This document shows positions 575 to 26,410 of a stretch of DNA of 27,729 bases, in pieces. The position numbers and the translations under genes were made by a program. Numbering within the stretch: position 1 is the stretch's first letter; each line of letters opens with the position of its first letter. A model generated the notes under the pieces. That model was not told the DNA's origin. It ran no database searches and saw only the letters and a program-made list of their open reading frames with translations. This DNA comes from a virus: the IMG/VR virus record IMGVR_UViG_3300002231_000204, positions 1 through 27,729 of that record. The stretch is one strand, 5' to 3'.

Positions 575-814
575 ATGCCGATAGACAACCATGAACACGA
601 CATGATAATGGGACATTTAATTGATATTAAAGAGTCTCAAGCGACTTTAAAGGCGAAGAGTGAAGCAACTTATGTTATAGTAGAAAAATTAGAGAAGAGG
701 GTTGGTAAGCAAAATGGTCGCATAGGTAAGTTAGAAAATTGGCGTAGTTACTTGGTTGGTATATGGGTAGCAATAAGTGCTATTGGTGGTATAGTATGGA
801 AAATATGGTTTTAA
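575..814 (+). CDS. Coiled-coil protein with C-terminal membrane anchor (XhlA/holin-like)
   Basis: This 79-residue protein has a charged helical N-terminal part, about residues 10-55, with heptad-like Leu/Ile/Val spacing (VIVEKLEKRVGKQNGRIGKL). One membrane helix follows at the C-terminus (YLVGIWVAISAIGGIVWKIW). That architecture is typical of XhlA-type haemolysin/holin accessory proteins of phages and of some other small lysis proteins. The RBS is GAGGGAAGA just before ATG 575, and the gene sits between a virion gene and the fibre genes, with endolysin and another holin candidate further downstream. A role in membrane permeabilisation is inferred from shape only; a tail-membrane interaction protein is an alternative. 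Confidence 0.65.
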   Translation: MPIDNHEHDMIMGHLIDIKESQATLKAKSEATYVIVEKLEKRVGKQNGRIGKLENWRSYLVGIWVAISAIGGIVWKIWF

Positions 815-833
815 ATAAGAGGATGAGGCAAGT

Positions 834-3800
834 ATGAAAAAGATTTTATTTCTATTAGTATTTTTAATGGCGATTACAGTTAGTGCTGGATTGCCCCCTT
901 CTCCATTTAAACCTGATGGTGCGTCAGATTCGCTTACGTATACCAACGGTACAGCTAATCTTGATATGAAGTATGTAGATGGCACATGGTGGTATTCAGG
1001 GAAATCAACAAGGATGCAATCATTTGGTGGAGTTATCATAGATAAATGGATTAACCCATTTATAGATACTACTGTAAAGTTTGATTCAACAACTTCAGAT
1101 TCTACATTCCCTAATGGGCAGGAATTAAATCTAGTCTATTGGGATTCTGTCGCGGGTGGTTGGGATAGCACCGATATTGTCCATCCTTATTACAAATACT
1201 TTCCGAATAAATTGTATGGGTATAGACATTGGATAGTCGCTTCGCCTTATAACAATGGTGCTTCTTATGAATCTCCGCATCTTTTTGTTGGTAACGATAT
1301 TGATAATATGCATCCTTTTATTGATTCTGTTGTTGGTAGCCCAACTTTCGGTGATTCTCTTGTTGGGGCTGTGGCTAAATCAGTCATTTATAATTCTGAC
1401 CCTGCTTTATTTTATGATACATTAACAGAAAAAACATGGGTATATTGGCGAGATTTGAGGGCTGGGACTTACAATTCTACACCTGATTCTTTATTTGTGG
1501 ATATTTCAGACCCTGACTCTACTATAATATGGGGAACTTATACAACCGATGGTTTAAATTGGTCTACCTCTGTCAAGCTATTAGAGACTCAAGATGATTG
1601 GTTCATTTATGATGATGATGGTGATGCTACTCCTGCTTATGATAGTTCTGATGGTGGCTCATATACAAGAGCTGATACACTTAGAGCTGTTGGTCGTTCG
1701 TGTGTATCTCCTTCTATCATCCGATATGATGGCAAATATCGTATGTATGGGACTACTCAGTCTTATAGAACAACAAGAGCTGGAAACGCAGTCGAATTTG
1801 CCAAAGATAGTTTATTCTATTGGGAAGCTGATTCCATTGGTGCGAACTCTTTTACGGAAGTTGGTTACGTTACGATAGATACTACCTCGCAAGCAACAGG
1901 AGCATCTGGTACTATTTGGCACGCAGAAGCAAGAGTATCCCCTGATTCAAGTATTTGGCTAACTAGCCTTGCTCCAACAGGTGCATCCCCTGCGTACCAT
2001 TTATCATTACAAAAATCAATAGATAGTGGAAAAACATTCCAACTTATAACAGAAACATTAGTAGATACGAACAACACTATTGGGGCGTGGGACAAAGATT
2101 TTATTTATAAAGCATCTATTGATTTTATGGATAAATATTTATTTACAGATAAAGGGATATACACTAAAGTACGTTTAGTTTATTCAGCTCAACTAACATC
2201 GGATGGTTATAGTATTGGGTATTCAGATGCTTGGTATAGATATGGTGATGTCTATGACGTTGGCGAATTCAATACTACAAGCAATTCAGGTTCAGGTTAT
2301 GAGATAGCTGAGAATAAAATCGGTGTAGATTTACCGATGAAGTCTTTACTGGCAGGGACAAATATAACACTTGACACATCTACGTCTGGTTCTATTACTA
2401 TAACAAGTAACGCCGACAGTCTTATAGCAAATTATGGTTTTGAATTACAAGCGGACACAGGTAGTGTTATCGTCTCCGCGAGTGACACTATAGGAGGAGT
2501 AAGTGGTTCTGCTAGACTCGTTGTTAAGGCTGATGGCGGTGATGCTATGATCCAGCTCATGGAAATTGATAATGGATGGAATATCCGCCATAAAGGTTCG
2601 GATAATGCTTTAGTTTTCTCTGGAACTTATGGTGGTTTCCCTCGGATGGAACTAAGTAGCGGGGGGAATTTAAAACTGAATAGTGCTTATACCTTGCCGA
2701 ACACAGACGGTACAACTAATTATGTTTTAAAGACAGATGGCTCTGGTACTGTAAGTTGGTCTGCTGATTTAACTGGCGGTACTGGTTCAACAGACTCGTT
2801 ATTTGTAAATGATACAACAGCTTTATCAACAGAAGGGTGGAAACAAACAGGAGATACATTACACCAAGACACTACCCAATATTTAGCGATTCAAGATACG
2901 AGTGGTTTATTCGGTGGTGGATCAACAGATTCGTTTTATGTTGCCGAAGCTGTATCTACTACTAATGGTTGGAAGCAAACAGGTGATACGATATTTATTG
3001 ATACAAGTTCAGGTGGTGGGTCAGGTGGATTATGGGATACTCTAGGTACTGCTGATACACTTACATATACTCTAGGGTCTGATACAGTCTTTTTCTTTTA
3101 TACTGCCGACGGTTGGGCTTTGGGGAGAGCAGGTTTATCTTTAGTAGATAGTCTAGAAGTTAATGACTTTATACGATTTATAGACGGTACAGATTCATTG
3201 TCATTTACTCCTCAACTTGTAGATTCAATGATTAACCAAAAGGGCGTGTATGCTCTTGATACAACTCAATATTTAGAACTTCAAGATACAAACGCATACA
3301 CACTAACAACTTTATTGTCAGCCGATACGGCAATAGGTGATAGTCTTGGTAGTTATTCTACTACTGCGGAGACTAATGGTTTGATAGGTGATACAGCTAC
3401 TATATTACGTGCCGAGATTGGGGATACCGCAAGACAAGCAACAAGTGATAGTCTATCCTTAGCTTTATTAAAAACTGGTGGTACTATGGGAAGTGGTGCT
3501 ACGGTGAACATGAATGCTGGTCATATAACAGGGGCAGATATTCTTTCTACTGATACTGTAATAATCGGAACAGATACTTTAGTTTCTGATGACATCCCAG
3601 CGTATTCATTAAGAATAAAAGTTAGAAACAATGCGACTGGGGCAACTTTACCAGCAGGTACTCCTGTATATTATACTGGTGGAGCGACTGCTGATGTCCC
3701 CCATGTAGATTCAGCTAAGGCATCGAGTAGTGCTACTATGCCAGCCATAGGTTTGTTAGAACGCGATATAGCAAATAACGCTGTTGGTTATGCTTTGACT

Positions 3801-9627: not shown

Positions 9628-10016
9628 TGCTTAAATTAAAAGAAGAAAATGGATTAGAGTATGAGGCTCGACTTGAAGTTGAGCTTCATAGAAGAGTAGA
9701 TAAGAGGTTACGTTCTATTCTCTTAGACCTCGCTTATGAGGTCGAGAGGAAGTATAAAAAAGATATTATCATTACTTGCCTTGAGCGTACCGAAAAGGAG
9801 AACCAGGAAGTTAATGGTTCTCCTTTTTCATCACATATGGATGGTCGTGGTGCTGACCTAAGAAGTTTTATTTTTTCTATAAAACAGCTTGACTATATAG
9901 AGAATTATTTGTATAATACATGGGGTAAGAGCTTTGTATATGTAAAGGTTCACGACTCAGGTAGTGGTCAGCATATACATTTGAACATAAGATATGAATA
10001 TAGAAAGGACTGGTAA
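9627..10016 (+). CDS. Endolysin-like D-Ala-D-Ala/L-Ala-D-Glu peptidase (peptidase M15 type)
   Basis: The 129-residue protein shows the two zinc-binding signatures of the M15/DD-peptidase fold: SSHMDGRGADLRS near residues 67-79 (the SxHxxGxAxD motif) and HDSGSGQHIHLN near 109-120 (second metal His pair). Such small single-domain enzymes cut peptide crosslinks of peptidoglycan in phage lysis or during DNA entry. There is no signal peptide, so a holin would be needed for lysis; candidates lie at 575 and 11967. ATG 9627 overlaps the upstream TAA. I am confident of the peptidase family. Whether it works as the lysis enzyme or as a virion-associated one is inferred from position. Confidence 0.8.
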   Translation: MLKLKEENGLEYEARLEVELHRRVDKRLRSILLDLAYEVERKYKKDIIITCLERTEKENQEVNGSPFSSHMDGRGADLRSFIFSIKQLDYIENYLYNTWGKSFVYVKVHDSGSGQHIHLNIRYEYRKDW

Positions 10017-11633: not shown

Positions 11634-11684
11634 ATTTTGGTATAGCATTCGATATAGTAGTAGAATAACAACTGCTCCCAAGCA

Positions 11685-11817
11685 AAAAAGTAGGCGACTT
11701 GGACAGGATATATCGGTCTTGTGTAGTTCAATCGGCAGAACACCGCACGATAGATGGTGGATTTAAGACGTTGCGAATTCGATACTCGCCACAAGACAGT
11801 CCAAGTCCTTGCTTTTT
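11685..11817 (+). ncRNA. tRNA-like structured RNA on a 19-bp stem
   Basis: The inner part, 11716-11797, has an 8-bp acceptor-like stem (GTCTTGTG with CACAAGAC), a D-arm (GTTC / AATCGGCA / GAAC, keeping the loop GG) and a T-arm with loop TTCGATA and stem GCGAA/CTCGC, whose innermost pair is mismatched. The anticodon arm is not canonical: 11743-11760 gives at best a 4-bp CCGC/GTGG stem, no T before a clear anticodon, and about 12 extra bases before the T-arm. Outside, 11685-11704 pairs with 11799-11817 in about 19 bp (two G-U, one bulged C). It could be a decayed or unusual tRNA, or a tRNA mimic with another job. Confidence 0.5.
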
Positions 11818-11930
11818 AAAAGTACGTTTTTTACCCCTATTTAAAGCACCTTAAAGGCATCTTTTTTAGGACAAATGCTCTATTTTAAACGAAAAATATC
11901 CTACCCATAGTAGAACATAGGTAGAAAAAC

Positions 11931-11949
11931 AAAGCTCTTAGAGGGCTTT
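11931..11949 (+). promoter_or_regulatory. Hairpin in the leader of the holin-like gene
   Basis: AAAGCTC and GGGCTTT form a 7-bp stem (one T-G pair) around a 5-base loop, just upstream of the AGGAG ribosome binding site of the gene at 11967. There is no following T run, so it is not a convincing terminator. It may protect the mRNA 5' end or affect translation. Apart from the structured RNA at 11685-11817, I see nothing else definite between 11634 and 11966. Confidence 0.35.
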
Positions 11950-11966
11950 AAAACAGGAGATTTACA

Positions 11967-12248
11967 ATGGAATCATTATCGTATCTTTACCCTTTAGTAT
12001 CAGGTTCGTTTATCGTTCCTCTTACTGACTGGGTTAAAAAGAAATTACCTGCTGATTTTCCACTAACCGCACCTGCTATATCAGGTATCTTGAATTTAGG
12101 TGCTATGTGGTGTTTAGCCCAATTATTCGCACCAACCATGTCATTTGAAGCTATTGTAGCTTATGCTTTAGGTGGACAATTTACATCTCAAGTAGCCCAT
12201 GCTGGTTGGAAAACTACAAAGAAATTAACCTTATTAGGAGATAAATAA
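11967..12248 (+). CDS. Holin-like small membrane protein
   Basis: The 93-residue protein contains three hydrophobic stretches (SYLYPLVSGSFIVPL, PAISGILNLGAMWCLAQLF and SFEAIVAYALGGQFTSQ) and a basic tail (KTTKKLTLLGDK). Size and architecture match phage holins, which form inner-membrane lesions that let endolysin out. The RBS is CAGGAG at good spacing to ATG 11967. It lies about 2 kb downstream of the endolysin gene and heads a short group with a DUF2829 protein and a secreted protein. The call is by shape, not by recognised family motifs. Confidence 0.6.
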   Translation: MESLSYLYPLVSGSFIVPLTDWVKKKLPADFPLTAPAISGILNLGAMWCLAQLFAPTMSFEAIVAYALGGQFTSQVAHAGWKTTKKLTLLGDK

Positions 12249-12251
12249 ATT

Positions 12252-12521
12252 ATGAGACCAGACTTAGGATTTGAGGATGCTTTAATATTACTAAAAAAAG
12301 GTCAAAAAGTATATAGAATGGGTTGGAATGGTAAAGGCATGTTTCTTTATTATGTCCCATCAGATACTTACGCTACAAGAACTGAAGTAGCAAAAAAAGA
12401 ATTCGGAGAAACCGTCCAGTATGGTGCTTATATAGCGATGAAAACCGCCCAAGGTTATGTAGCCCCTTGGTCAGCATCTCAAACTGACTTATTAGCTACT
12501 GACTGGGAGATTTCAGAATGA
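12252..12521 (+). CDS. tad2-like: DUF2829 protein, Tad2-like (candidate Thoeris anti-defence)
   Basis: The 89-residue product follows the DUF2829 pattern throughout: GFEDALILLKKGQKVYRMGW, NGKGMFLYYVP, the conserved IAMKTAQGYVAPW and SASQTDLLATDWEI. The family includes Tad2, a phage protein that blocks Thoeris defence by sequestering its cyclic-nucleotide signal; this comes from published work on the family, not from the sequence here. Family membership is clear to me. Anti-Thoeris activity of this member is inferred, since many DUF2829 proteins are untested. It lies four bases after the holin-like gene, and its stop overlaps the start of the secreted protein (ATGA). Confidence 0.85.
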   Translation: MRPDLGFEDALILLKKGQKVYRMGWNGKGMFLYYVPSDTYATRTEVAKKEFGETVQYGAYIAMKTAQGYVAPWSASQTDLLATDWEISE

Positions 12522-12994
12522 AATACCTATTAACATTATTACTATTACTCGTGCCTATATCAGTAACCTTTGGTGCTGATGCTAACCCTACCTTTGAGGT
12601 TGGTAGTATGACTATTGACGGTGGTTCATCCCACCTAGCTTATTTTACTGGCTTTGAAATGAATCTCAAAAAGACTAAAGGTTTTGTTAATAAAATCCGT
12701 ACGGGATATTATCAAATCCGTAATGAATGGCCAGAGAAACAAGGTTATTTTGCTTGGAATCTTAGCCAAGTAACACTTAAAGAATCATGGTGGGACTTTT
12801 ATGCTTCATCGGGGTTTGGTGTACTAAACGAGGTTAATAACGGCGATGACTACCAAAAAGGTGGCACTATGTTAGAGTTTGGGTGTAAGGCTTTCGATAA
12901 GCTACCTATTGGTATAGGTGCTAAGTTATTCCCAGTAGATGATAGAGGTGATAAGGTATTTTTATATGGGATGATAAGTTTTAGTTTACCATAG
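12518..12994 (+). CDS. Secreted protein resembling a small outer-membrane beta-barrel
   Basis: A signal peptide (MKYLLTLLLLLVPISVTFGA, cleavage near FGA-D) precedes about 138 residues of alternating polar/hydrophobic strands with many aromatic residues: FEVGSMTIDGGSSHLAYF, KIRTGYYQIRNEW, WWDFYASSGFGVL, MLEFGCKAF, KVFLYGMISFSLP. This resembles small 8-strand barrels, although the last residue is Pro rather than the usual aromatic. A phage gene for a host outer-membrane protein could exclude superinfecting phage or change the surface, as Lom-type proteins may do. It ends 25 bases before a strong terminator and closes the rightward late transcription unit. Confidence 0.6.
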   Translation: MKYLLTLLLLLVPISVTFGADANPTFEVGSMTIDGGSSHLAYFTGFEMNLKKTKGFVNKIRTGYYQIRNEWPEKQGYFAWNLSQVTLKESWWDFYASSGFGVLNEVNNGDDYQKGGTMLEFGCKAFDKLPIGIGAKLFPVDDRGDKVFLYGMISFSLP

Positions 12995-16377: not shown

Positions 16378-16837
16378 ACTTTAACCCATATTCTGCTATA
16401 CATATAGCGTCAGCCATACCATCGCTATCTTTTTTGCTTCTTTTAGTCGGTAATAAACTAATATGCGGATATTTCTGCTTAACATATCTTATCGAAGCGG
16501 ACTTATCACCTTTAGGATACCCAACTAATATTTTCTTCTTCCATTCTTGAGGTCGTACTAGTATATATGGCAGATTCAAAGCTGAACAAATACCTTGTAT
16601 CATCCCAAACTGTTCACCGAATCTAAACACCGATGTGACACCTTGCTTCGGCATAGCCGATACTTTCTCTATGACAACGAGATCAGGTTGGTACATTTCT
16701 AACCTACCGACTATCATAGGCAAATCTAAATATATCTTCTCGCCTTTAGCCACAGGCATCATAACAACGCCGTCAACTTTGCTACCAAGCAACGCAATAG
16801 CCCCTTTGAACCCGACATCAATCCCTATGACTCTCAT
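16361..16837 (-). CDS. RuvC-like Holliday-junction resolvase
   Basis: The 158-residue protein shows the RuvC/RNase H-like layout: a first catalytic Asp in MRVIGIDVGFKGAIAL, Glu in PDLVVIEKVSAMP, the middle segment GQFGMIQGICSALNLP, and the C-terminal Asp pair in SDGMADAICIAEYG. Phage enzymes of this type resolve branched recombination and replication intermediates before packaging. It lies with SSB and a Sak4-like ATPase in the same leftward operon, which fits a phage recombination system. The start is set by an AAAGGAG RBS inside the 26-bp repeated junction at 16833-16858. Confidence 0.88.
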   Translation of the reverse strand: MRVIGIDVGFKGAIALLGSKVDGVVMMPVAKGEKIYLDLPMIVGRLEMYQPDLVVIEKVSAMPKQGVTSVFRFGEQFGMIQGICSALNLPYILVRPQEWKKKILVGYPKGDKSASIRYVKQKYPHISLLPTKRSKKDSDGMADAICIAEYGLKYDNRG

Positions 16838-17600
16838 GCTTCTCCTTTGGCTCGTGGAAATTTTGTTCTGCTATTTGACAAAATAGACTGCAATCTATTA
16901 CAGGCTCTTCGTCGATGCGACCAACGTTGCTGTCAAGCTCGTCGAGGAAAACCCTTTTGCGTTCTCCGTCCCCTGCGTAGCTCTTATTTATAGCAACATT
17001 TAATTTCCTCTCTATTTTGCTCATTCTATCAAATATATCAGGAAAATCTACTCTTATTTTATTCCAATAGCCCGACTGCCCTTTCGGGCATCCTATGCAA
17101 TTATTGTGACCATAGCCGAGCTTATACATTGTTGGCAATTCTATCCCTTGCCTTTCTAGTAAAGCAAGACAATCAGACTTAGATAACCCCTTTTCTATCA
17201 GATTAAACTCTAGGTTTAATTCAGGGAAGTTATCTTTTAATTTTTGCATTCTATTTCTTTCCCCCACATCAAAGCCAAAGATATGAATATCGTCGTGTCT
17301 TTGGAAATCTTCTCTCAACTTCTTTTTTAATTCAATAGTACATCTTGCACCATAAACCCCTGCTAAATATTTTGTTTTTTCAAAGACATCAAAATGGTCT
17401 GTATATTTTTCATTCTTAAGGATAATAACTTTTCTACCCAACCATCGCTCGACATCTTTTAAGAATTTTTTGTTTGATTTATGCTCACCGCCAGTATCGC
17501 AATAAACAATAGAACACCTATCATGATACTTATCAACAGCTAACTTGGCGGATATAGCAGATGTTGCCCCACACGAAAACCATGAAATAACTCTACTCAT
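16818..17600 (-). CDS. PAPS-reductase/ATP-sulfurylase-fold protein (adenine nucleotide alpha-hydrolase type)
   Basis: The 260-residue protein has a PP-loop-like start (ISWFSCGATSAISA), YCDTGGEHKSN, GARCTIELKKK, HIFGFDVGERNRM and a Cys motif NNCIGCPKGQSGYW. These are typical of phosphoadenosine-phosphosulfate-reductase family proteins carried by many phages, of which DndC is a relative. True PAPS reductases reduce activated sulfate. Phage members are of uncertain role, and a link to DNA phosphorothioation or tRNA/DNA thiolation is speculation. Both gene ends lie in copies of a 26-bp direct repeat, and the tail HEPKEKHE recurs in the upstream YopX protein, suggesting insertion or duplication at this junction. 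Confidence 0.85.
   Translation of the reverse strand: MSRVISWFSCGATSAISAKLAVDKYHDRCSIVYCDTGGEHKSNKKFLKDVERWLGRKVIILKNEKYTDHFDVFEKTKYLAGVYGARCTIELKKKLREDFQRHDDIHIFGFDVGERNRMQKLKDNFPELNLEFNLIEKGLSKSDCLALLERQGIELPTMYKLGYGHNNCIGCPKGQSGYWNKIRVDFPDIFDRMSKIERKLNVAINKSYAGDGERKRVFLDELDSNVGRIDEEPVIDCSLFCQIAEQNFHEPKEKHESHRD
16833..16858. repeat. 26-bp direct repeat, copy 1 (gene junction)
   Basis: This stretch is identical to 17596-17621. It covers the codons for the HEPKEKHE tail of one gene plus the AAAGGAG ribosome binding site and ATGAG start of the next. The two copies flank the PAPS-reductase-like gene. Confidence 0.85.
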
Positions 17601-18014: not shown

Positions 18015-18746
18015 TCACCTTTCTGTAGACACCCCGTGTCTTTCTTTTAAACCTAAAAACATTTCAAGTTGTGGTCGAATAAGCGGATGCCATCCGTCCC
18101 AAGCACAAACCTCGATTGCTTCTTTTTTTGTAAGTAAGCTCTTCATGTCGTCCCAACAATTTTTTCCGTCAAGGATTTCATCACGCCATTTTAATAATGG
18201 CTTCATATTAGCCCAATACTCTCTCCAAAAAGGTAGTTTTTTTGTTGAAAACCATTTACACCTAATATCAAAATTAAATGAGAAAATATACCCACCTGCT
18301 TTGATATACCCACCTGCTTTGATATACCTACCTGCTTTGATATACCAACCTGCTTTGATATACTCACCTGCTTCGATAGACTCACCTGCTTTGATATACC
18401 AACCTGCTTTGATATACTCACCTGCTTCGATATACCCATCTGCTTTGATATACCAACCTGCTTTGATATACCAACCCGCTCTGATATACCCACCTGCTTT
18501 GATATACCAACCTGCTTCGATAGACTCACCTGCTTTGATATACCTACCTGCTTCGATATACCCATCTGCTTTGATATACCAACCTGCTTCGATATACCAA
18601 CCTGTAACTTTTAGAAAACCATCAACAAGTAATCGTTTTTGTATATTCAAAGGGCAATTAGCTATTAAAGACCCTTTTACATGATACCCATATTCGTCTT
18701 TAAATTGTTCAAGTTCATCAGGACTGTTTATTGTATATGTTTTCAC
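18015..18746 (-). CDS. Hexapeptide-repeat protein, long copy
   Basis: The start is GTG 18746, overlapping the upstream stop (GTGA). Residues 1-50 form a short domain (TINSPDELEQFKDEYGYHVK, LLVDGFLKVTG). Eighteen tandem hexapeptides follow, of the type GWYIKA, GESIEA, GGYIKA, DGYIEA, and then a non-repeat C-terminal domain of about 85 residues (FDIRCKWFSTKKLPFWREYW). A strict six-residue period with Ile at a fixed place suggests a beta-solenoid such as a left-handed helix; the KA/EA alternation is reminiscent of bactofilin-like or other scaffold repeats. Function is unknown. The 18-bp DNA repeats make the array prone to length change. Confidence 0.75.
   Translation of the reverse strand: MKTYTINSPDELEQFKDEYGYHVKGSLIANCPLNIQKRLLVDGFLKVTGWYIEAGWYIKADGYIEAGRYIKAGESIEAGWYIKAGGYIRAGWYIKAGWYIKADGYIEAGEYIKAGWYIKAGESIEAGEYIKAGWYIKAGRYIKAGGYIKAGGYIFSFNFDIRCKWFSTKKLPFWREYWANMKPLLKWRDEILDGKNCWDDMKSLLTKKEAIEVCAWDGWHPLIRPQLEMFLGLKERHGVSTER
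18288..18605. repeat. 18-bp tandem repeat array, about 18 units
   Basis: Units such as CCAACCTGCTTTGATATA recur without spacers and code on the minus strand for the GWYIKA-type hexapeptides. Variation is mostly at the two positions that change W/G/E/R and K/E. The array is coding, not CRISPR. Confidence 0.9.
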
Positions 18747-18787
18747 CCTTCCACCGTCCTTAATCTAAGGTTCTCAGCAAGGACAGC
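18605..18787. repeat. Duplicated block, copy 1 (183 bp)
   Basis: It aligns without gaps to 18913-19095, at an offset of exactly 308 bases, with about a dozen mismatches by eye. It covers the N-terminal coding part of the long hexapeptide gene and the C-terminal codons of the short one. Confidence 0.85.
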
Positions 18788-19054
18788 TTTGATATACTCA
18801 CCTGCTTTGATATACCAACCTGCTTTGATAGACCCACCTGCTTCGATATACCAACCTGCTTCGATATACCAACCTGCTTTGATATACCTACCTGCTTTGA
18901 TATACCTACCTATAACTTTTAGAAAACCATCAACAAGTAATCGTTTTTGTATATCTAAAGAACAATTTGCTACTAAAGAACCTTTTACATGATACCCATA
19001 TTCATCTTTAAATTGTTCAAGTTCATCAGGACTGTTTATTGTATATATTTTCAT
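18743..19054 (-). CDS. Hexapeptide-repeat protein, short chimeric copy
   Basis: This 103-residue paralogue has the same N-terminal domain as the long copy (KIYTINSPDELEQFKDEYGY) but only seven hexapeptides (GRYIKA, GWYIEA, GGSIKA and others). After the repeats it ends AVLAENLRLRTVEG, which is the C-terminus of the neighbouring gene at 19051 (NAVLAENLRLRTVEG). Its own C-terminal domain is missing. It therefore looks like the product of a tandem duplication whose breakpoint fell inside the repeat array. ATG 19054 overlaps the upstream stop (ATGA), and its stop overlaps the GTG of the long copy, so it is still translationally coupled and may be expressed. Confidence 0.7.
   Translation of the reverse strand: MKIYTINSPDELEQFKDEYGYHVKGSLVANCSLDIQKRLLVDGFLKVIGRYIKAGRYIKAGWYIEAGWYIEAGGSIKAGWYIKAGEYIKAVLAENLRLRTVEG
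18785..18910. repeat. 18-bp tandem repeat array, seven units
   Basis: The units are of the same family as the array at 18288-18605 and encode the hexapeptides of the short paralogue on the minus strand. Confidence 0.85.
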
Positions 19055-26255: not shown

Positions 26256-26329
26256 AGTGAAAATAAATGATTTATTTTACTTTAAGTTAACATAATATGA
26301 GAAGATTTTTAGTGAATATTTAATACTAT

Positions 26330-26410
26330 AAGTGTAAGTAAAATTTTTAAAAAATCAATTTTATTTTTAAGTTATAAAATTGATTTTCATTTTATATTTT
26401 ACTTACACTT
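26330..26410. repeat. Nested long inverted repeat in the regulator leader
   Basis: The outer arms 26330-26344 and 26396-26410 are perfect over 15 bp (AAGTGTAAGTAAAAT and its complement). The inner arms 26351-26364 and 26374-26387 are perfect over 14 bp (AAAATCAATTTTAT). The structure is AT-only in the middle with a 9-base loop. It could be an operator, an origin element or an RNA hairpin in the leader. Confidence 0.75.

What the first reader, a model, noticed from the sequence alone, without database searches (positions are those of the whole stretch)
11685..11817. tRNA-like domain capping a 19-bp RNA stem, with no normal anticodon arm
Acceptor, D-arm and T-loop are recognisable, but the anticodon arm is not, and the leader and trailer pair over 19 bp to end in a T run. 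A functional tRNA would have these flanks removed. This could be a tRNA mimic, for example a decoy for tRNA-cleaving defences, an RNase P or translation regulator, or the terminator-capping fold of the late operon.
Basis: partly seen in the sequence, partly recalled or inferred. Interest (0 to 1): 0.68.

Follow-up and report, generated by a model that had tools for sequence, protein, structure and literature searches.

The report
Phage tRNA mimic capping terminator stem
Between two genes of a virus that infects bacteria lies a short stretch whose RNA would fold into most of a transfer RNA, without a usable codon-reading arm, perched on a long double-stranded stem that ends like a transcription stop signal; it is either an RNA that imitates tRNA or a worn-out tRNA gene, and no relative was found to decide between the two.

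Summary
At 11685-11817 (+) a 20-nt leader (one bulged C) pairs over 19 bp with the trailer, ending in five T. Inside is a tRNA-derived domain. ARAGORN and Rfam miss it, but a tRNA covariance model built from 30 real tRNAs scores 11717-11798 at 31.7 bits (E 7e-7; next best in the window 10.2 bits), and the reverse search finds only tRNAs. Acceptor (8 bp), D-arm, T-loop and core contacts are intact. The anticodon arm has a bulge and no U33, the variable region has about 7 extra bases, and one T-stem pair is mismatched: more than one base from a normal tRNA. Leader-trailer pairing (-26.9 kcal/mol) exceeds that of all 59 comparison tRNAs (best -18.7). It lies in the only large gap (333 bp) of the late operon, upstream of a Tad2-like (anti-Thoeris) gene. 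It resembles Y RNA (YrlA) in concept, but real YrlA is permuted with its stem in the anticodon position; here the order is normal and the stem extends the acceptor end. No homologue was found, so covariation is untestable. Best reading: a stand-alone, non-decoding tRNA mimic on a terminator stem. Main rival: a decayed tRNA gene inside a terminator. Function is inferred.

The parts
11637..11666 (+). weak sigma-70-like promoter match (TTGGTA-18-TAGAAT), would start RNA about 10 nt before the stem
   Evidence: 9 of 12 matches; as many such sites are expected by chance, so weak
11685..11704 (+). 5' arm of the 19-bp stem, AAAAAGTAGG[C]GACTTGGAC, bulged C at 11695
   Evidence: pairing probability about 1 except the outermost A-T pairs
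11705..11715 (+). 11-nt mostly unpaired leader just before the acceptor stem (position of an RNase P cut), opposite one unpaired A at 11798
11716..11723 (+). acceptor stem 5' strand GTCTTGTG (includes a G-1 : C73 type eighth pair)
11726..11741 (+). D-arm, 4 bp, loop AATCGGCA with A14, G18 G19, A21
11743..11760 (+). degenerate anticodon-arm hairpin CCGCACGATAGATGGTGG: 4 bp (5 with a bulged G), no U33
11761..11772 (+). 12-nt variable region without a stem (about 7 nt longer than class I tRNAs)
11773..11789 (+). T-arm GCGAA TTCGATA CTCGC; loop consensus intact, A53-C61 mismatch
11790..11797 (+). acceptor stem 3' strand CACAAGAC; no CCA encoded
11799..11817 (+). 3' arm of the stem GTCCAAGTCCTTGCTTTTT, ending in a T run as in an intrinsic terminator
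11634..11966 (.). 333-bp intergenic region that holds the element; other gaps in the + operon are at most 84 bp
12252..12521 (+). Tad2-like gene (Pfam PF11195), second gene downstream; context only
   Evidence: E 3.4e-25

Best explanation
The element is a stand-alone non-coding RNA of about 135-145 nt. It began as a tRNA and keeps the parts that proteins recognise on the tRNA elbow and acceptor stem, but it has lost a usable anticodon arm. Its two ends are clamped into a 19-bp helix whose 3' half and T run also end the transcript (intrinsic terminator), so the tail stays double-stranded and no CCA end for charging is exposed. It would work as a stable tRNA mimic that occupies a tRNA-binding enzyme without being charged or decoded, for example a processing or modifying enzyme or a tRNA-cleaving defence nuclease. 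Shown by computation: tRNA ancestry, the clamp, the missing normal anticodon arm, the genomic position. Inferred: separate transcription, termination, stability, and binding or decoy action.
For: Independent tRNA model E 6.9e-7 at exactly 11717-11798. Reverse search: all 12 non-self matches are tRNA genes, with the caveat that L212-L219 were chosen for tRNA-like sequence. Core-contact residues (U8, A14, A15, G18, G19, T48, T54, T55, C56, A58) intact while damage is concentrated in the anticodon arm and variable region. Leader-trailer helix far outside real tRNAs and the best in the window. It sits in the only large gap of the operon, before a Tad2-like gene. Precedents: YrlA was proposed as a competitive inhibitor of an anticodon nuclease (PMC7790460); [quoted passage not shown] RNA decoys against CRISPR exist (PMC10651486, abstract).
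Against: No homologue, so no covariation or evidence of long-term selection. No expression data. The promoter match is no better than chance. For retron-Eco7, changing the anticodon or stem-loops of the phage tRNA-Tyr abolished rescue, so the authors presumed that translation function, not decoying, was needed (PMC11555353). A recently broken tRNA gene would look similar.
Confidence: 0.4

Rival explanations
1. A relic: a captured tRNA gene has lost its anticodon arm and now only fills the loop of an intrinsic terminator that ends the late transcript or attenuates the downstream Tad2-like operon. No tRNA-like function remains.
For: A-tract, stem and T run form a terminator-like unit; the tRNA departs from consensus in several places; another damaged phage tRNA turned up in passing, L013 3676-3752.
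Against: All acceptor and D pairs, the T-loop and core-contact bases are intact, which neutral decay would not favour; a 94-nt loop is unusual for a terminator; 59 real tRNAs show no comparable leader-trailer pairing.
Confidence: 0.35
2. A working but odd tRNA: the 11-nt unpaired leader lets RNase P cut at 11715/11716, the stem is a processing stalk (for example for RNase III), and the tRNA matures despite its unusual anticodon arm; the G-1:C73 pair recalls tRNA-His.
For: Single-stranded leader exactly at the RNase P site, 8-bp acceptor, intact core.
Against: No U33; the nominal anticodon in a 7-nt loop would be AUA with G33, to my knowledge not used in bacteria; irregular stem; no CCA; trailer locked in a helix; not called by ARAGORN or Rfam.
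Confidence: 0.1
3. A cis-acting switch: transcription starts just upstream and the tRNA-capped terminator controls read-through into the three-gene operon with the Tad2-like gene, for example released when a tRNA-cutting or tRNA-binding host factor acts on the nascent RNA.
For: Position directly upstream of 11967-12994, no sigma-70-like promoter found on the + strand between 11817 and 11967, terminator-like end.
Against: No alternative anti-terminator fold was identified; no homologues; cutting in the loop would not by itself open the stem.
Confidence: 0.1
4. A member of the bacterial Y RNA (YrlA) family carried by a phage.
For: Same concept: paired ends plus a tRNA-like domain of about 90-150 nt (PMC8394870); Y RNAs have been reported from mycobacteriophages (stated in PMC12282133).
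Against: No Rfam RF02553 match; real YrlA has permuted order with the stem in place of the anticodon arm and a closed acceptor hairpin; no TROVE/Ro protein in the record.
Confidence: 0.02

Closest known systems
Bacterial Y RNA YrlA (Rfam RF02553)
   Same: long helix made by the two ends plus a tRNA-like domain with D, T and acceptor elements and no anticodon arm
   Different: YrlA is permuted: stem - T arm - acceptor hairpin - D arm - stem, the stem standing where the anticodon arm would be. Here the order is that of a normal tRNA and the stem extends the acceptor end; no Ro protein gene in the record.
Phage-encoded tRNAs that counter tRNA-cleaving defences (T5/SP15 tRNA-Tyr, T6 tRNA-Tyr, T5 tRNA-Lys)
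   Same: phage tRNA-type RNA with altered loops
   Different: those are full tRNAs; in one case function needed an intact anticodon and stem-loops (PMC11555353); this one lacks a usable anticodon arm and has a clamped end
tmRNA
   Same: tRNA-like domain without a normal anticodon arm, extended by a helix
   Different: no match to a tmRNA model; helix is on the acceptor side
Intrinsic (bidirectional) terminators
   Same: A tract, stem, T run
   Different: stem of 19 bp with a 94-nt structured loop that is a tRNA domain
RNA anti-CRISPRs (Racr)
   Same: phage small RNA imitating a host RNA to mislead a defence (as a concept)
   Different: mimics CRISPR repeats, not tRNA; no shared sequence was tested

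Membership tests
tRNA (functional) | homology to tRNA in acceptor, D-arm and T-arm | tested here: met
   model R2 31.7 bits, E 6.9e-7; reverse model finds tRNAs
tRNA (functional) | 7-nt anticodon loop with U33 on a 5-bp stem | tested here: not met
   bulged stem, no U33
tRNA (functional) | recognised by standard gene finders above threshold | tested here: not met
   ARAGORN 0; RF00005 none to E 10
tRNA (functional) | matured by RNase P and 3' processing, CCA-ended, charged | not testable with these tools
   no CCA encoded; needs RNA work
YrlA / bacterial Y RNA | covariance-model match to RF02553 | tested here: not met
   none to E 10
YrlA / bacterial Y RNA | permuted order with the end-paired stem in the anticodon position | tested here: not met
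   compare with the order 11716-11797
YrlA / bacterial Y RNA | long stem from pairing of 5' and 3' ends | tested here: met
YrlA / bacterial Y RNA | linked Ro/TROVE protein gene | tested here: not met
   no PF05731 in the 33-kb record, which may be incomplete
tmRNA | match to tmRNA models | tested here: not met
Intrinsic terminator | G+C-containing stem directly followed by a T run | tested here: met
   (the simple scanner only accepts loops of 3-8 nt and so cannot see it)
Intrinsic terminator | ends transcripts in vivo | not testable with these tools
   needs 3'-end mapping
Phage RNA decoy against tRNA-targeting defence | binds or inhibits a tRNA-targeting enzyme | not testable with these tools
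   no partner known

The most novel reading that the evidence does not exclude
A new type of phage RNA: a non-permuted, anticodon-less tRNA clamped at its acceptor end by its own terminator stem, made in quantity to sequester or sense tRNA-targeting host enzymes, and placed upstream of an anti-defence operon.
Probability: 0.2. Interest if true: 0.8.

Novelty: new variant of a known kind. Interest (0 to 1): 0.45.

Why it matters
tRNAs are now recognised as common targets of bacterial immunity, and phages answer with replacement tRNAs. A phage RNA that keeps the shape proteins grip but drops the part that is cut or decoded would be a different answer, a decoy rather than a replacement, and a second, independently arranged example of the tRNA mimicry seen in Y RNAs. 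It gives a compact, testable RNA of about 135 nt. If it is a relic, it still shows how a tRNA gene can be absorbed into a terminator.

Tried and rejected
Homologue searches by neighbouring proteins: the exonuclease has distant relatives (L001-L038) without the element (blastn, nhmmer and ARAGORN); the 100-aa and 93-aa neighbours and the portal protein have none. DNA patterns in viral contigs gave nothing or ordinary tRNAs, some with long variable regions, and one chance match. blastn in phages and plasmids gave only tRNA fragments or chance. The element's own covariance model over 768 kb of loci found only tRNAs. The same model over 37 whole viral records was empty, but that search also missed the L214 match already seen, so it is uninformative. 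YrlA membership was rejected after fetching real YrlA RNAs. An attP reading was considered and set aside: both halves of a tRNA are present, not only the 3' part, and no integrase was seen among the proteins scanned (not every protein of the record was scanned). A suppressor tRNA for a recoded phage was set aside because the long genes are open under the standard code.

Full report
What was checked. The window is part of a 33,134-base virus record. Upstream are tail-type genes, an M15 peptidase (probable endolysin) and a DnaQ-like exonuclease; the second gene downstream is a Tad2-like (anti-Thoeris domain) protein.

The stem. 11685-11694 pairs with 11808-11817 and 11696-11704 with 11799-11807: 19 pairs, two of them G-U, with one bulged C at 11695, running into TTTTT. 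Folding energy is -44.6 kcal/mol against -29.9 +/- 3.7 for shuffles (z -3.9). Taken alone, the leader-trailer duplex is -26.9 kcal/mol; at the same spacing the next independent place in the window reaches -23.1. So the stem is not a usual companion of tRNA genes.

The tRNA domain. ARAGORN reports nothing and no Rfam family, tRNA included, reaches E 10. Yet the acceptor stem is 7/7 (8/8 with a G-1:C73 type pair), the D-stem 4/4, the D-loop AATCGGCA carries A14, G18, G19 and A21, U8 and A9 are present, and the T-loop TTCGATA with C61 is consensus. A descriptor with these features finds exactly this one place in the window; random sequence gives 0.01 per window. A covariance model built from 30 real tRNAs scores 11717-11798 at 31.7 bits, E 6.9e-7, next best 10.2 bits. 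The reverse search, with a model of the element, over 768 kb returns 12 matches besides itself, all tRNA genes (L212-L219 had been fetched with a tRNA-like pattern, but L106 and several tRNAs in L213 and L214 were not what the pattern matched). blastn of the 82-nt domain in phages finds mostly annotated tRNAs at chance-level E-values. tRNA ancestry is therefore well supported.

What is wrong with it as a tRNA. In the anticodon position there is only a weak hairpin, 11743-11746 / 11757-11760 (about -3.3 kcal/mol), extendable to five pairs with a bulged G; the loop CGATAGA has G where U33 belongs. The variable region is 12 nt without a stem in a domain whose D-arm is of class I type. A53-C61 is mismatched. 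No CCA is encoded, and the discriminator region runs into the outer helix. The cloverleaf is about 2 kcal/mol above the minimum-energy fold in a calculation that ignores tertiary contacts (-41.4 against -43.6). Several changes separate it from a normal tRNA. I did not run a scan of altered sequences to count them; the alignments to real tRNAs answer the point.

Comparison with Y RNA. The layout (paired ends, tRNA-like domain, no anticodon arm) first suggested bacterial Y RNA YrlA, described as a 90-150-nt RNA with a large end-paired stem and a tRNA-like domain (PMC8394870) and reported from mycobacteriophages (stated in PMC12282133). I fetched real YrlA RNAs from genomes. Their consensus runs stem, T-arm, acceptor hairpin, D-arm, stem: a circular permutation in which the end stem replaces the anticodon arm and the acceptor is closed by a loop. 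The window's element runs stem, acceptor, D-arm, anticodon remnant, T-arm, acceptor, stem. It is not a YrlA, it does not match RF02553, and no TROVE gene is in the record. The two would be different topological routes to a clamped, non-decoding tRNA mimic.

Relatives. None was found. The exonuclease has relatives at up to 67% identity, but their next genes differ where they were read and none carries the element. Neighbouring proteins have no relatives in viral contigs except the widespread Tad2-like gene. Pattern scans returned ordinary tRNAs or nothing.

How it most likely works. Shown by computation: tRNA origin, intact elbow and acceptor, disrupted anticodon arm, strong outer helix ending in a T run, placement before a Tad2-like operon. 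Inferred: it is a short terminated transcript, the clamped ends keep it stable and uncharged, and the retained tRNA face occupies a tRNA-binding enzyme. Precedents are the proposal that YrlA competes for an anticodon nuclease (PMC7790460) and the suggestion that phage tRNA-Tyr acts as a decoy or supplement against Septu (PMC13096335). Against this, retron-Eco7 rescue by phage tRNA-Tyr needed an intact anticodon and stem-loops (PMC11555353). The main rival is a tRNA relic inside a terminator; I give 0.40 to the mimic and 0.35 to the relic. A working odd tRNA or a cis switch for the downstream operon each get about 0.1.

Verdict. It is a new variant of a known kind (tRNA mimic or tRNA-derived RNA), interesting mainly because its topology differs from Y RNA and because it is directly testable, but it rests on a single sequence with no expression data.

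Noticed in passing
L113:1248-3638 (record G000 28247-30637, outside the window): Terminase large subunit appears interrupted by an intein: CLLGDTMVLLPNGSS... to ...GGVIVSN, inserted before SGKS of the Walker A motif, with LAGLIDADG-like stretches. Read by eye plus mixed helicase/primase/terminase PHROG matches.
   Followed up: partly
L013:3676-3752: Another degenerate tRNA-like element downstream of an exonuclease relative in a different phage: good T-arm and acceptor, anticodon position apparently a short hairpin with a GAAA loop; 24.2 bits with the session's tRNA model, 21.8 with Rfam tRNA (below threshold).
   Followed up: partly
L214:7142-7234 (-): Viral tRNA-Ile (UAU) of 93 nt with about 20 extra bases that form their own hairpin between anticodon arm and T-arm.
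   Followed up: no
L219:3145-3486 and L220:2805-3146: A permuted tmRNA (RF04321) directly followed by a long tRNA-Phe-like gene on viral contigs.
   Followed up: no
window 18015-19054 (-): Two adjacent genes with nearly the same start (MK.YTINSPDELEQFKDEYGYHVKGSL) and repeats of the type GWYIKAGGYIEAG, apparently a tandem duplication of a short-repeat protein.
   Followed up: no
window 26274-26410: Cluster of A+T-rich inverted repeats (15 bp perfect with 51 nt between, 14 bp perfect with 9 nt between, and a weaker one), possibly a regulatory or replication site.
   Followed up: no
window 9793-9827: Perfect 13-bp inverted repeat with a 9-nt loop inside the M15 peptidase (probable endolysin) gene.
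   Followed up: no
window 16818-17600 (-): PAPS reductase-like protein that also matches the SspD model of the phosphorothioation defence system (E 3.7e-15); more likely the common phage PAPS reductase-like family (phrog_424).
   Followed up: partly
L199 (genome G252), 779-1627 (-): At least four YrlA copies in tandem within about 850 bp of one contig of a genome from the class of Xanthomonas.
   Followed up: no
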